64,000 nucleotides of DNA from NCBI RefSeq assembly GCF_023333585.1, contig NZ_JAIQZN010000008.1, positions 1-64,000 of the forward strand, given 5' to 3'. Under the pieces are notes generated by a model. It was not told the origin of the DNA. It did not search any database and saw only the letters and a list, made by a program, of their open reading frames with translations. Positions 47,363 through 53,100 of the stretch are shown piece after piece; position 1 is the stretch's first letter; every line of letters starts with the position of its first letter. Position numbers and translations under genes: made by a program. The stretch comes from Argonema antarcticum A004/B2. GTDB taxonomy: Bacteria > Cyanobacteriota > Cyanobacteriia > Cyanobacteriales > Aerosakkonemataceae.

Positions 47363-49009
47363 ATGAATCAGGGCGATCGCAAAACCAATAAAGAGCTAGT
47401 GGACAAAGCACTAGAAGATATTTTAGTACCGGGTATCAAGCCGTTTATCCAGCGTCAGATGAAGAAAATTTATGGCAAAAACTGGTTGCAGGATGCGCGG
47501 CTTGGTTTACAGGATTATCACTTTGAGGGAGATGACCTAAAATGGAAAGACCCCCAAGTTGTGCTGAAACTAATCATCGATAAATGGAATGATGCTTTTC
47601 GTGATGCGCCCCAACTTGGTTATTCTCAGCGCAGTCTAGTTAGTGAATTGCTGGAAGTCCGCAACGCAGTCAAGCATAACGATTTACAGAAATTTGATAA
47701 TGACTATACTTACCGCGCACTTGATAGTATGGGGCGATTGCTGACTGCTGCGGATGCTAAGAAAGCAGCACAGGAAATAGAACAGCGAAAGGAAGAATTT
47801 AGGCGAAAAACTTGGGTAGATAATCAAGTTGAAGAAAAGCCAAAACAGGTAATTAGCAATCAATCAGCAGTTGCAGAGTCAGCGAAGGTAAATCATCAGT
47901 TTCAAGCGTTGATAGATGAGAAAACAGATGGTTTTGTTGGGCGTGAATTTGTATTTAAGGCAATCGAAAATTTTCTCGTAAGTCAGCCCAACGGTTACTT
48001 TATTATAGAAGCAGATCCCGGTATGGGAAAAACTGCTATTTTAGCTGAATATGTCCGGCGGACGGGGTGTGTAGTTCATTTCATTATTCGTTCTCAAGCT
48101 ATCAACCGCGCCGATCAATTTCTAGAAAGTATTTGCGCTCAACTTATTTCGCGCTATAATTTAGGTTATCCCTCCTTAACATCTGAAGCTACGCGAGACG
48201 GCAAGTTTTTTGCTAAATTGCTCGAAGAAATTAGTGCAAAACTTAAACCAGGTGAACGGCTGGTAATTGCGATCGATGCACTGGATGAAGTAAATCAAAC
48301 CGACCACTCTGGCGGAAATATCCTTTATTTACCTGTAGCTTTACCCAAGGGAGTTTATTTTGTTTTAACACAAAGAGCGATCGCTCTACCTTTAACAGTT
48401 AACACGCCTCCCCATCGGTTTAAGTTGATGCAGTATCAAGCCGAAAGTTTGCAAGATATCCAAACATATATTAGGCGAGAAATTGAGAAATCGCCGCAGC
48501 TTAAGGCGTGGATTGATGGACAAAGGTTGACGGGAGAAGATTTTGTTACTTTGCTTGCTGAGAAAAGCGAGAACAATTTCATGTATTTGAAGTATGTTTT
48601 GGAGGAAATTGAGCGGGGATTTTATCGAGATTTGAGTATTGATAATTTGCCGCAAGGTTTACAGGCTTATTATGAGGATCATTGGCGGCGAATGGGGATG
48701 ATTGCTAAACCTTTGCCACGTCCTAAAATTAAAATTGTGTATGTTTTGGCGGAAGCGCGTAAGCCTGTTTCTCGGCAGTTAATTTGCGATTTTACGGGTG
48801 AAGATGCGTTGACTGTTCAGGATGTGTTAGATGAGTGGGAGCAGTTTTTGCGATCGCAATCTATCGATGGACAGCGCCGTTATAGTATTTATCACGCCAG
48901 TTTTCAGGATTTTTTGCATCGCTTAGATATCGTGCAAGCAGCAGGGGTAACGCTGAAAGATATTAATGCCATGATTGCCGATAATTTATCAGAGGAGCTT
49001 GGTTTGTAA
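47363..49009 (+). CDS. HEPN-like (Swt1-type) NACHT/STAND ATPase
   Basis: 548 residues from the ATG at 47363 (GGGGAG and GAGAG upstream; the in-frame TTG at 47345 is less likely). Residues 1-150 resemble Swt1-type HEPN domains and contain R100-x4-H105 (EVRNAVKH), matching the RX4-6H RNase motif. Residues about 185-520 form a STAND/NACHT ATPase with Walker A DPGMGKT (218-224) and Walker B LVIAIDALDE (300-309). The stop TAA overlaps the next ATG as TAATG. In related cyanobacterial proteins this region is joined to WD40 repeats, so this is likely the front part of a split gene. A defence role is inferred from the architecture. Confidence 0.85.
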   Translation: MNQGDRKTNKELVDKALEDILVPGIKPFIQRQMKKIYGKNWLQDARLGLQDYHFEGDDLKWKDPQVVLKLIIDKWNDAFRDAPQLGYSQRSLVSELLEVRNAVKHNDLQKFDNDYTYRALDSMGRLLTAADAKKAAQEIEQRKEEFRRKTWVDNQVEEKPKQVISNQSAVAESAKVNHQFQALIDEKTDGFVGREFVFKAIENFLVSQPNGYFIIEADPGMGKTAILAEYVRRTGCVVHFIIRSQAINRADQFLESICAQLISRYNLGYPSLTSEATRDGKFFAKLLEEISAKLKPGERLVIAIDALDEVNQTDHSGGNILYLPVALPKGVYFVLTQRAIALPLTVNTPPHRFKLMQYQAESLQDIQTYIRREIEKSPQLKAWIDGQRLTGEDFVTLLAEKSENNFMYLKYVLEEIERGFYRDLSIDNLPQGLQAYYEDHWRRMGMIAKPLPRPKIKIVYVLAEARKPVSRQLICDFTGEDALTVQDVLDEWEQFLRSQSIDGQRRYSIYHASFQDFLHRLDIVQAAGVTLKDINAMIADNLSEELGL

Positions 49010-49335
49010 TGGGTGATTTAGGCGATCGTTTAGCAAAAATGTCACCGGAAAGGCGACACTATGCTTTGGAAACTTTACCGAGTCATTTAGCCGAAGCATC
49101 TCAGTCAGAACGATTTTATAAATTGCTGACTGATTTCGATTTTATCGAAGCTAAAATTTCTGCTTTGGGGGTGCAATCGCTAGTTGAAGATTACGATTTT
49201 GCTTTTAATCCTGATGTGTTGTTTTCCGAGGAAAAAGCAGAGAGTTTGAGATTAATCAAGGGGCGATTCGGCTATCGGCGCACATTTTGGAGAAGGATAA
49301 AACACAATTGGCTGGGCAATTGTTGGGGCGCTTGA
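49009..49335 (+). CDS. Linker segment of NACHT-WD40 protein (frameshifted ORF)
   Basis: 108 residues, starting at the ATG that overlaps the upstream stop. RLAKMSPERRHYALETLPSH and LTDFDFIEAKISALGVQSLV match the helical linker between NACHT and WD40 domains of related proteins. At GGGG (49260-49263) the expected continuation GAIRLSAHILEKDKTQLAGQ lies in the next frame, so the last about 24 residues here are out of frame. It is therefore part of the downstream gene, not an independent one. Confidence 0.6.
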   Translation: MGDLGDRLAKMSPERRHYALETLPSHLAEASQSERFYKLLTDFDFIEAKISALGVQSLVEDYDFAFNPDVLFSEEKAESLRLIKGRFGYRRTFWRRIKHNWLGNCWGA

Positions 49336-51515
49336 TGTCTTTTGATTTGCCAGAGATTAAGCTGTTGTTAGAAAAGGTGAAGTTGATAGTAAATGCACCT
49401 TGGTTGCGGCCATTGAAACCTAACTTAACACCTCCTGGTGGGCGTTTGTTACGGACTCTTATAGGTCATACAGGAGCTATATTAACTTTAGCAGTAACAC
49501 CAGATGGCAAGTGGATAATATCTGGTTCGTCTGATAAGACTATCAAAATCTGGAATTTAAAAACAGGAGCGGAAATTTTCACTCTTATAGGTCATACCGA
49601 TAAAGTAACATCTATCGCATTGACATCAGATGGTAAAAGGCTAATTTCTGGTTCAGATGATTGTACTATTAAAGTTTGGGATTTGGGAAACCAAAAGGAG
49701 CTTTTCACTCTTCAAGGCCACACTGAGTCAATCAATATTGTAACAGTTGCACCTAATGAAATATATTTTGTTTCAGGTTCAAAAGATAAAACTCTCAAAG
49801 TTTGGGCTTTGGAAACAGGAGAAGAACTTTGCACTCTGATAGGTCATACCGACTCCATATTAAGTGCAGCAGTATCACCAGATGGTAGTGAGGTGTGGAC
49901 TGGTTCAAAGGATCAAACTCTCAACGTCTGGATGTTGGGAACTGAAGAACCTTTAAGTTATTTTCGAGGAAGATCAGTACCTTACATATCATTCACTTCA
50001 GATGGTAAGCAAAGGATTGTACAAATTGGAGAGGCTCAAGGAGATATAAATTTCTATATATGGGATTTAGAGAAATCAGGTTCACCGAGAATATTATCCG
50101 AATTATGCTATGAAGAAGAACTGAATAATGTAATATTTACAACCAATCCTAAGCAGGTATTTCATAGTTCATTTAGCGACCAGTTTGGGGCAAATATAGT
50201 AGCCTGGTCTTGGGAAGAAGAAACAGAAGAAATACTTTTTTCTTTTACAACTCATACAAGCTATATAACATCTCTCGCCATATCGCCTGATAATAAATGG
50301 ATAATTTCTGGTTCAGTAGATAAGACTATCAAAGTCTGGAACCTGGAAATAAAAGAGGAAACTTTCACCCCTATGGAGCATGAATTTCCTTTAGAATATG
50401 TTGCTTTTACTCCCGATGGGAAGCGATTAATCTCTAGATCTCGAAGTGATGATACTTTACAAGTATGGAATTTGCAAACAGGTGAATCGTTTATAGAAGA
50501 AAGAGTATCTGCTCTCGCAGTAACCCTAGATAGTAAGTGGCTAATTTGTGCTTCTTTTTTCAATAGTATAATAGTCTGGGATCTGGAGACAGGTGAAGAA
50601 GCTTTCACCCTTCATGGCCATACAAATATGGTAAATTATTTGGCAGCAACACAGGATGGTAAGCGTTTAATTTCTGGTTCAGATGACAAAAGTATCAAAA
50701 TTTGGAATCTCGAAACAAGAGAAGAATTATTGATACTGACAGGACATACTGGCGGTATAGCGAAAGTTTATGTAACTTCTAATGGCAAGCATTTAATTTC
50801 TAGTTCATGGGACAAAACCATTAAAGTATGGAATTTAGAAACCGGACAAGAAATTTTCACATTTGGAGATCATACTTTTCGCCCAGAAATCGAAACTAAA
50901 AGAGATGTGATTACAGTTAGTTTTGCCGTGAATATTGATGCAGTTATCCCTAATGACAAACTGGTTATTTCTAGTTATAACTCTTTGGAGTCCCAAGAAG
51001 TAATAATCTGGAGTTTAGAAGACGGAAAAGAGCTTTTTACTTTTAATGGTAAGTTTTTAGCGGTAACGCCAGATAGTAAGCGAGTTATTTTCCGTTTAAA
51101 TCCTACTACTATACAAATTTATGATTTGCAACTGAAGAAAGAAATTTTTACTTTAGGAGGTCATACTGATTTTGTAAATAACGTAACGATTACCTCGGAT
51201 AGTCTATGGATGTTTTCTTGGTCAAAGGATAGCACGATCAAAGTTTGGAATCTGGATATTGGAACTGAAGAATTTACTCTTCATGGTCATACAGATTGTA
51301 TAAATTCTGTAGCGCTAACAGCAGATAACAAGAGGTTGATTTCTGCTTCATCTGACCACAGTCTGAAAGTTTGGGATTTAGCAACTCGAAAGGTAATCGG
51401 TACTTTTACTGGAGATAATGTGTTGACTTGCTGTGCTGTTGCACCCGATGGTGTAACGGTCGCAGCAGGCGAATCATCAGGAAGAGTTCATTTCCTGCGA
51501 TTAGAAGGTTGTTAG
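49287..51515 (+). CDS. WD40-repeat part of the split NACHT protein
   Basis: About 742 residues. From residue about 55 on there are roughly 14-15 WD40 units (GHTDxVxxxAxTxDGKxLISGSxDxTIKVWxLxTG), several degenerate, enough for two seven-bladed propellers. The listed start is a TTG inside the domain continuation; the natural protein frame begins upstream in 49009-49260. WD40 repeats would be the ligand-sensing part of a STAND protein. It is either a sequence error, a programmed frameshift or a real inactivation. Confidence 0.75.
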   Translation: MEKDKTQLAGQLLGRLMSFDLPEIKLLLEKVKLIVNAPWLRPLKPNLTPPGGRLLRTLIGHTGAILTLAVTPDGKWIISGSSDKTIKIWNLKTGAEIFTLIGHTDKVTSIALTSDGKRLISGSDDCTIKVWDLGNQKELFTLQGHTESINIVTVAPNEIYFVSGSKDKTLKVWALETGEELCTLIGHTDSILSAAVSPDGSEVWTGSKDQTLNVWMLGTEEPLSYFRGRSVPYISFTSDGKQRIVQIGEAQGDINFYIWDLEKSGSPRILSELCYEEELNNVIFTTNPKQVFHSSFSDQFGANIVAWSWEEETEEILFSFTTHTSYITSLAISPDNKWIISGSVDKTIKVWNLEIKEETFTPMEHEFPLEYVAFTPDGKRLISRSRSDDTLQVWNLQTGESFIEERVSALAVTLDSKWLICASFFNSIIVWDLETGEEAFTLHGHTNMVNYLAATQDGKRLISGSDDKSIKIWNLETREELLILTGHTGGIAKVYVTSNGKHLISSSWDKTIKVWNLETGQEIFTFGDHTFRPEIETKRDVITVSFAVNIDAVIPNDKLVISSYNSLESQEVIIWSLEDGKELFTFNGKFLAVTPDSKRVIFRLNPTTIQIYDLQLKKEIFTLGGHTDFVNNVTITSDSLWMFSWSKDSTIKVWNLDIGTEEFTLHGHTDCINSVALTADNKRLISASSDHSLKVWDLATRKVIGTFTGDNVLTCCAVAPDGVTVAAGESSGRVHFLRLEGC

Positions 51516-51577: not shown

Positions 51578-52066
51578 ATGACAGAAAATCGTTTAGAATT
51601 GCTAGAGTGCTATTTATCTACACTTCTCGAAAAAGCCTCTGTTTCCCAACAGCGAAATGCTGCTATAGTCGCCAGTCGCTTTGCACTCGATCGCACTAGC
51701 TTAAGCGATCCAATTGTTGAACAAGCATTAAAAGCAATCGAACTTGGCAATTTCAGTGACGACTCTTTAAGGGAAAAAATTGAATCCTTGGTTAACCAAT
51801 TAGATGAAATTCAGTGGAATTTGCAAGATAAGATGGAGGAAGGTGAAACAGATATATCTACATATATAGCTGCTTTCCAACAAGCAAGATCGGCTAATTC
51901 TCTGTATTTTGCATTAGATGCAAATGCGCTAATTGCCGCAACCGAATCTATTTATGAGGCTGATGCAGCTACCGATGATTTAGCAACTTTGAAACAAATA
52001 ATTTTGGAATCATTTAAACATCAAAGTGGCTCTGGAGAAGCAATAATTGAAACTCAAATAGCTTAA
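51578..52066 (+). CDS. Hypothetical acidic helical protein, 162 residues
   Basis: No recognised family. MTENRLELLECYLSTLLEKA, helices through REKIESLVNQLDEIQWNLQD, and an acidic C-terminus. It starts 62 bp after the WD40 stop, same strand, and converges with the minus-strand small-gene operon (52178-53100). Confidence 0.6.
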   Translation: MTENRLELLECYLSTLLEKASVSQQRNAAIVASRFALDRTSLSDPIVEQALKAIELGNFSDDSLREKIESLVNQLDEIQWNLQDKMEEGETDISTYIAAFQQARSANSLYFALDANALIAATESIYEADAATDDLATLKQIILESFKHQSGSGEAIIETQIA

Positions 52067-52573: not shown

Positions 52574-52753
52574 TCACACTTCCAACTTCTGTGCAGCAGC
52601 ATCCCGTTTAGCTTCCGCCCTCAGTCGCCACTTTTCTTCTACTTTTGCTGATTCCTGCATAAATTCTTTAAGTTTCTGTTCTCCAACTGTTACAATTTCT
52701 TGAATATGTTCTAGGATAGCCAGTTGTTTTTCCGTCAGTTCTGGTTGTTTCAT
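52574..52753 (-). CDS. Tiny paralogue 1, coupled to the 116-residue protein
   Basis: 59 residues: MKQPELTEKQLAILEHIQE, VTVGEQKLKEFMQ, then EKWRLRAEAKRDAAAQKLEV. The ATG overlaps the upstream TGA as ATGA, indicating translational coupling. Helical, charged, with no recognised family. Confidence 0.65.
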   Translation of the reverse strand: MKQPELTEKQLAILEHIQEIVTVGEQKLKEFMQESAKVEEKWRLRAEAKRDAAAQKLEV

Positions 52754-53100
52754 TGCAAGTTCTCCAAGCGAATTTTAACACTACTAACAAGTATTTTTGT
52801 TTCCAAAACTCGACCTAGCTTGTTGCCCAAATCTTCTCCTGCTTCCCGAATCTCCTCATCTGTAGAAGCCTCCTCAGCCAACAGATTGTCAACTATATCC
52901 CTAATCAGTCCTCTTTCGATGTCTACATAAAAAACAGCGTTATTCAAAAAAGCAAACATTTGAATCAGTGTGGAATTATCTGGGAAACGCTCCATGCTGA
53001 CTCTGGCTAAGTTAAGTCCCGCTCTTGCTTCCCGATCGATTATATCTAACTCTTGGTTTAACCGCTCAATCAGCGCGTTCAGTTCTGATGGAATAGTCAT
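52750..53100 (-). CDS. Helical protein, first gene of the tiny-gene operon
   Basis: 116 residues, no recognised family: MTIPSELNALIERLNQELDI, then NSTLIQMFAFLNNAVFYVDI, ending KIRLENLQ. Predicted almost all-helical. Starts 59 bp from the divergent kinase gene and overlaps the next gene by 4 bp. Partner of the tiny paralogues by context; function unknown. Confidence 0.65.
   Translation of the reverse strand: MTIPSELNALIERLNQELDIIDREARAGLNLARVSMERFPDNSTLIQMFAFLNNAVFYVDIERGLIRDIVDNLLAEEASTDEEIREAGEDLGNKLGRVLETKILVSSVKIRLENLQ

What the first reader, a model, noticed from the sequence alone, without database searches (positions are those of the whole stretch)
47363..51515. HEPN-NACHT-WD40 (NLR-like) locus split into three ORFs by two -1 frame changes
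The N-terminal domain carries R100-x4-H105, the RNase motif of HEPN domains, fused to a STAND ATPase, with about 14-15 WD40 sensor repeats following. Together this is the layout of a candidate antiphage/abortive-infection switch. The frame changes at 49007-49011 (TAATG) and at the GGGG run 49260-49263; both are -1. Known: HEPN RNases and NACHT/STAND proteins act in immunity. Inference: this one does so and the HEPN is the effector. Whether the break is programmed, an error or decay is open.
Basis: partly seen in the sequence, partly recalled or inferred. Interest (0 to 1): 0.78.

Follow-up and report, generated by a model that had tools for sequence, protein, structure and literature searches.

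The report
Two-gene Apaf-1-like RNase immune switch
A cyanobacterium carries a bacterial cousin of the animal cell-death protein Apaf-1 as two neighbouring genes, one with an RNA-cutting domain plus the ATP switch and one with the propeller sensor; one of the two reported frame breaks is the normal boundary between these genes, and the other is a one-letter lesion found only in this copy.

Summary
The three ORFs and both -1 frame changes are real, but the breaks differ in kind. Break 1 (TAATG, 49007-49011) is an ordinary gene boundary: in 46 related pairs the ATPase gene (A) and the APAF1_C-WD40 gene (B) are separate, offset +1 (22), -1 (16) or 0 (8), mostly overlapping by a few bases. That excludes a conserved frameshift. 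Break 2 is peculiar to this copy: in 44 of 44 other pairs that could be checked, both halves of B share one frame; here one nucleotide is missing within 49250-49259, just upstream of the GGGG run. Gene A is HEPN(Swt1)-STAND-winged helix, with R100-x4-H105 kept in all five HEPN versions. The intact paralogue of gene B is predicted to match the whole C-terminal half of Apaf-1 (TM 0.83). The system is thus an Apaf-1 layout cut between winged helix and helical arm, with exchangeable N-terminal modules (HEPN, EAD4, EAD10, NNH5, HTH). Most likely it is an abortive-infection-type RNase switch whose sensor subunit is damaged here; a same-genus relative shows a more decayed version at the same site. 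RNase activity, A-B binding and phage defence are untested.

The parts
47363..49009 (+). Gene A: HEPN_Swt1 - STAND ATPase - winged helix, 548 aa, intact
   Evidence: ORF, Pfam, AlphaFold model and fold search
47417..47749 (+). HEPN_Swt1 domain (aa 19-129)
   Evidence: Pfam PF18731, E 8e-26
47660..47677 (+). R100-x4-H105, predicted RNase motif
   Evidence: Read from the sequence; the R-x4-H pattern is kept in all five HEPN-type relatives aligned
47894..48712 (+). STAND ATPase with lid (about aa 178-450)
   Evidence: Pfam NPHP3_N, AAA_16, AAA_lid_TANC1; P-loop and Walker B invariant in the alignment; model
48719..48922 (+). Winged helix (about aa 453-520), with an invariant His511
   Evidence: Secondary structure of the model, VIA match to Apaf-1 up to its residue 470, alignment
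48992..48997 (+). GAGGAG, possible ribosome-binding site for gene B, 11 nt before its ATG
   Evidence: Read from the sequence; not tested
49007..49011 (+). TAATG: stop of gene A overlapping start of gene B (break 1, a gene boundary)
   Evidence: 46 pairs with frame offsets +1, -1 and 0
49009..51515 (+). Gene B: APAF1_C helical arm + WD40 propellers, interrupted by one frame lesion (ORF2 + ORF3)
   Evidence: Both halves in one frame in 44 of 44 other pairs checked; model of the intact paralogue
49051..49197 (+). APAF1_C (Apaf-1 helical arm) match
   Evidence: PF17908
49250..49259 (+). Site of the frame lesion (break 2), one nucleotide short relative to all homologues
   Evidence: Alignment of the conserved LRLIQGAIRLSAHIL motif
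49333..49337 (+). TGATG: premature stop of ORF2 overlapping an ATG in the WD40 frame; possible re-start
   Evidence: Read from the sequence; may be chance
49287..51515 (+). ORF3: linker and WD40 repeats, open over 742 codons
   Evidence: ORF, Pfam WD40 E 9e-99, 11 stretches passing on their own

Best explanation
This is a two-gene, Apaf-1-like STAND switch. Gene A makes an effector-switch protein: a Swt1-family HEPN RNase, a STAND ATPase and a winged helix. Gene B makes the sensor half: an Apaf-1-type helical arm plus a 7- and an 8-bladed WD40 propeller. Gene B starts on the stop codon of gene A, so the two are probably made by coupled translation and assemble into one Apaf-1-like unit (inferred). 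When the propellers sense an invader or damage signal, the ATPases would exchange nucleotide and form a ring that brings HEPN domains together to cut RNA and arrest the cell (inferred from Apaf-1, MalT and HEPN biology). In this copy gene B carries a one-nucleotide lesion just after the helical arm, so the complete sensor is probably no longer made; this looks like recent decay or, less likely, an assembly error. Shown here: domain content, the gene boundary, the uniqueness of the lesion, cognate A-B inheritance, predicted folds. Inferred: complex formation, RNase activity, trigger and defence role.
For: Domains: HEPN_Swt1, STAND ATPase, APAF1_C, WD40. Gene boundary: 46 A-B pairs, offsets +1 (22), -1 (16), 0 (8), 29 overlapping; two annotated CDS on a complete Pseudanabaena plasmid. 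Lesion: same frame in 44 of 44 other pairs checked, one nucleotide short in a conserved motif. Decay at the site: same-genus genome G001 lacks A and keeps a truncated B between conserved flanks. Structure: A resembles Apaf-1 and MalT up to the end of the winged helix; intact paralogous B resembles arm plus both propellers of Apaf-1, TM 0.83. Pairing: distance correlation r 0.68 over 45 pairs; of 1536 within-genome re-pairings only the true one reaches it. Exchangeable N-terminal modules, typical of effector or adaptor positions. R-x4-H kept in all HEPN-type A proteins.
Against: No biochemical evidence for RNase activity, A-B binding or defence. The window locus lies beside housekeeping genes (gyrase subunit, histone-deacetylase-like gene, helicase), not in a defence island. 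Many sister A proteins carry HTH domains, so a regulatory role is possible for part of the family. No known PADLOC system matches beyond weak ATPase hits. The HEPN fold was not modelled and searched alone.
Confidence: 0.6

Rival explanations
1. The three ORFs are one protein made through two programmed -1 ribosomal frameshifts.
For: Both changes are -1 in the window; the second lies beside a short G run.
Against: At break 1 relatives show offsets +1, -1 and 0 and gaps of up to hundreds of bases. At break 2 no relative has a frame change, and the homologous frame is lost a few bases upstream of the G run. No conserved slippery site.
Confidence: 0.02
2. Break 2 is a sequencing or assembly error and gene B is intact in the living strain.
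For: ORF3 is otherwise open over 742 codons; the genome is a draft of 249 contigs; a single nucleotide is involved.
Against: The site is not a long homopolymer. The neighbouring 2.5 kb aligns to G001 at 92.6% with one gap. The same site is decaying in a same-genus genome, and other B genes of the family are interrupted.
Confidence: 0.3
3. The pair is a STAND transcription regulator or signalling switch of normal physiology, not a defence system.
For: MalT is the top VIA match for the ATPase of A; several sister A proteins carry HTH domains.
Against: This copy has an RNase-type HEPN, not an HTH. Sisters carry effector-associated domains, and one pair sits beside a caspase gene on a mobilizable plasmid. 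Patchy distribution: 24 of 292 genomes of the phylum at E 1e-40.
Confidence: 0.15
4. The lesion is tolerated: ORF3 is re-started at the TGATG overlap, so that this lineage makes a separate WD40-only protein from a three-gene operon.
For: The premature stop overlaps an ATG in the WD40 frame (49333-49337), and ORF3 has stayed open.
Against: No relative has this arrangement; no clear ribosome-binding site; an ATG at a stop is a modest coincidence. A recent lesion explains the open frame equally well.
Confidence: 0.1

Closest known systems
Apaf-1 / apoptosome
   Same: Order of ATPase, winged helix, helical arm, 7- and 8-bladed propellers; A and B models together cover it
   Different: Two genes instead of one, cut between winged helix and arm; HEPN instead of CARD; ATPase matches NPHP3_N/AAA_16 models rather than NB-ARC
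Swt1/Abi2-family HEPN fused to STAND ATPase (Anantharaman et al. 2013, PMC3710099)
   Same: HEPN_Swt1 in front of a STAND ATPase, R-x4-H kept
   Different: The known architectures listed there have TPR or S1 partners in the same chain; here the WD40 sensor is a separate gene
Cyanobacterial and algal NB-ARC/WH-like/APAF1_C/WD40 proteins and the stand-alone Ulva APAF1_C/WD40 protein (PMC8891106)
   Same: APAF1_C plus WD40 sensor half
   Different: Reported cyanobacterial forms are single chains; no partner ATPase was identified for the Ulva protein
TEP1 / NWD1 / NWD2 / NPHP3 (PMC13174449)
   Same: NPHP3-type ATPase, Apaf-1-like helical domain and, in several of them, WD40 repeats
   Different: Single chains with a TIR-like DUF4062 effector instead of HEPN
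Bacterial STAND/NACHT antiphage proteins (Avs, bNACHT)
   Same: STAND switch with an N-terminal effector and a C-terminal sensor; weak Avs1b HMM match and Avs3 structural match to the ATPase
   Different: Single chains with other sensors; no two-gene HEPN plus APAF1_C-WD40 arrangement (general knowledge)

Membership tests
HEPN superfamily, Swt1-like | Match to the HEPN_Swt1 profile above its cut-off | tested here: met
   91 bits against a cut-off of 27.5
HEPN superfamily, Swt1-like | R-x4-6-H motif | tested here: met
   R100-x4-H105, same pattern in all five HEPN-type relatives
HEPN superfamily, Swt1-like | HEPN fold | tested here: inconclusive
   The model shows a helical N-terminal domain, but the fold searches covered mainly aa 171-543
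HEPN superfamily, Swt1-like | RNase activity | not testable with these tools
   Needs an assay
STAND NTPase | P-loop ATPase, lid and winged helix as in Apaf-1/MalT | tested here: met
   Invariant P-loop and Walker B; MalT Z 17.9, 326 residues, 6.3 A; Apaf-1 Z 14.8, 323 residues, 7.2 A
Apaf-1-like | Helical arm plus 7- and 8-bladed propellers | tested here: met
   Model of the intact paralogue: TM 0.83 to apoptosome Apaf-1 over 817 columns; APAF1_C profile match in ORF2. In the window itself the gene is interrupted.
Apaf-1-like | One polypeptide with ATPase and sensor | tested here: not met
   Separate genes in 46 of 46 pairs
Apaf-1-like | CARD at the N-terminus and caspase activation | tested here: not met
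   HEPN_Swt1 occupies that place; caspase activation not tested
Programmed -1 frameshift gene | Frame offset and site conserved in homologues | tested here: not met
   Offsets +1, -1 and 0 at break 1; no break in homologues at break 2
Antiphage defence system | Protection against phage | not testable with these tools
   Needs an infection assay; no PADLOC system matched beyond weak ATPase hits

The most novel reading that the evidence does not exclude
Cyanobacteria use a split apoptosome: a family of two-gene Apaf-1-like switches in which the effector-ATPase and the propeller sensor are separate, co-inherited subunits, so that assembly of A with B in trans is itself a regulated step and effector modules (RNase, adaptors, DNA-binding domains) can be exchanged without touching the sensor.
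Probability: 0.35. Interest if true: 0.75.

Novelty: new variant of a known kind. Interest (0 to 1): 0.5.

Why it matters
Apaf-1-type switches are usually thought of as single chains in which the sensor folds back on the ATPase. A natural, conserved division at the joint between winged helix and helical arm makes it possible to test how the sensor restrains or licenses the switch by adding or withholding one subunit. It also bears on where animal, algal and plant APAF1_C-WD40 proteins came from, including the stand-alone algal form with no known partner.

Tried and rejected
Programmed frameshifting at either site: rejected by frame offsets and by homologues. Lesion at the GGGG run: rejected, the alignment places it a few bases upstream. 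Near-identical WD40 repeats as cause of the break: no tandem array found at DNA level. A conserved third gene downstream: the 162-aa gene at 51578 has a match in only 3 of the 30 genomes searched (own genome among the rows) and occurs at the same site without the complete pair, so it belongs to the site and not to the system; the 116-aa gene at 52750 belongs to an eight-member family in this genome. Sequence searches of solved structures gave no confident relative for A or for the arm. PADLOC gave only weak ATPase matches. The second prediction slot went to gene B, so the HEPN domain was not folded and searched alone. One Pfam call failed because a chosen stretch of L092 held stops. The first mirror-distance script printed its correlation and then stopped with an error; it was redone. 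Papers found (passages read) describe no two-gene Apaf-1-like arrangement with a HEPN, but only open-licence papers were searchable and I read passages, not whole papers.
Full report
Observation. The three ORFs, their coordinates and the two successive -1 frame changes are in the sequence as stated. Pfam assigns HEPN_Swt1 (E 8e-26) and a STAND-type P-loop ATPase (NPHP3_N, AAA_16, TANC1-like lid) to ORF1, APAF1_C (E 9e-10) to ORF2 and WD40 (E 9e-99) to ORF3. The window lies in a 7.7-Mb cyanobacterial draft genome of 249 contigs with 42 NACHT-profile matches in all.

Break 1 is a gene boundary. Relatives of the ATPase were gathered from 60 related genomes and 292 genomes of the phylum, named genomes, plasmids and longer stretches. 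In 46 distinct pairs, counting the window, the ATPase gene (A) ends and an APAF1_C-WD40 gene (B) begins at frame offset +1 (22), -1 (16) or 0 (8). Of these, 29 overlap (ATGA, TAATG or an 8-nt overlap), 9 are 0-30 nt apart and 8 are further apart, up to 714 nt in an intact pair. One row is a second fragment of a broken gene A and inflates the total and the last class by one. One frameshift product cannot have three different offsets, so these are two genes. The Pseudanabaena sp. ABRG5-3 plasmid, a complete record, carries them as two annotated CDS 41 nt apart near a caspase gene. Fused forms were not seen among the close ATPase relatives. Three of 32 APAF1_C matches in 60 genomes sit in frames longer than 1200 codons and are probably fused proteins of another branch.

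Break 2 is a lesion of this copy. In 44 of 44 other pairs that could be checked, the APAF1_C part and the first WD40 linker share a frame; the window is the only exception. The premature stop (TGA 49333-49335) overlaps an ATG in the WD40 frame, which might allow a WD40-only product; this may be chance. Decay is the likeliest cause. In a same-genus genome (G001) the flanks of this very site are 92.6% and 87.8% identical, but between them gene A is absent and B is a truncated remnant. A genome of another genus has neither. Other B genes of the family are interrupted too. An assembly error cannot be excluded, because ORF3 is otherwise open.

What the proteins look like. The model of gene A (pLDDT 80.5) has a helical N-terminal domain, an ATPase with lid and a winged helix. 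Foldseek's best match is Apaf-1 (1z6t, E 9.7e-7). VIA-align gives MalT (Z 17.9, 326 residues, 6.3 A), a STAND-TPR protein (Z 15.6, 292 residues, 6.2 A) and Apaf-1 (Z 14.8, 323 residues, 7.2 A); the last aligns model 174-548 with Apaf-1 111-470, that is, up to about the end of the winged helix (Apaf-1 domain limits from general knowledge). The intact B of the own-genome paralogue on contig C85 was modelled at pLDDT 92.5: nine helices followed by WD40 blades. Its match to Apaf-1 in the apoptosome covers the whole protein (5juy, TM 0.83 by query length, 817 columns, rmsd 4.6 A). The VIA rows show a 7-bladed propeller at 166-457 and a second one formed by about 151-155 plus 464-789. Together A and B rebuild Apaf-1, cut between winged helix and helical arm.

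A and B belong together. Distances among A proteins and among B proteins correlate (r 0.68 over 45 pairs; 2000 free shuffles reached at most 0.14). To separate this from shared species history, partners were re-paired only within genomes holding several pairs: of 1536 arrangements only the true one reached the observed value, the next best being 0.671. The margin is small, so this is support and not proof.

The N-terminus of A is exchangeable: HEPN_Swt1 in five (window, own paralogue, Planktothrix twice, G003), EAD4 in two, EAD10 in two, NNH5 in two, HTH_26 or LuxR-type HTH in several, and a glycine-rich hydrophobic segment of about 270 aa without a Pfam name in others. HEPN in L039 was seen by tblastn rather than Pfam. 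Such swapping is typical of effector or adaptor positions in STAND conflict systems (PMC7159879, PMC8195603). The R-x4-H pattern is kept in all five HEPN forms, consistent with an active RNase.

Mechanism. Best reading: B is the sensor arm and A the switch with its effector. Coupled translation keeps them in step. Ligand binding to B's propellers would release A for nucleotide exchange, ring formation and HEPN activation. In the window the sensor is damaged while A is intact; if that is real and A is expressed, A is unlikely to be constitutively lethal without B (inference). None of this has been tested biochemically.

Comparison with the literature. Swt1-family HEPN fused to STAND ATPases is known (PMC3710099, Table 1). 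[quoted passage not shown] Human TEP1, NWD1, NWD2 and NPHP3 share the ATPase neighbourhood, the helical domain and in part WD40 (PMC13174449). I found no description of the conserved two-gene form, within a library limited to open-licence papers. I rate it a new variant of a known kind.

Noticed in passing
L092 (G001:C66), between the flanks of the window locus: In this same-genus genome, the site holds a truncated B remnant followed by an open stretch with a HAE...PxxC pattern that looks like a nucleotide/nucleic-acid deaminase; gene A is missing.
   Followed up: partly
L091 (Pseudanabaena plasmid ABRG53a): An A-B pair with a ParA/CbiA-like domain plus EAD10 in front of the ATPase lies near a caspase gene on a mobilizable plasmid, close to transposases.
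   Followed up: partly
L045 (G000:C124) and similar loci in other genomes: In a sister branch a second, shorter STAND ATPase gene without N-terminal module (about 370-420 aa) follows one to three kilobases after the first, suggesting an A-B-A' arrangement.
   Followed up: no
L044, L045, L046, L048, L050: Gene B is interrupted or shortened in several other copies, including two in single-contig genomes; in L048 and L050 gene A is broken too. High turnover may be a habit of this family.
   Followed up: partly
L039, L043, L046: In three HEPN-type relatives the B frame is open for about 100 nt or more upstream into gene A, so the start of B is uncertain and may overlap A widely.
   Followed up: no
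window 49333-49337: The stop created by the lesion overlaps an ATG of the WD40 frame (TGATG), like a second gene boundary.
   Followed up: partly
window 52750-53100 (-): A 116-aa protein without Pfam match belongs to a family of eight in this genome; a 56% identical copy also lies downstream of another A-B pair (contig C100), in the same orientation.
   Followed up: partly
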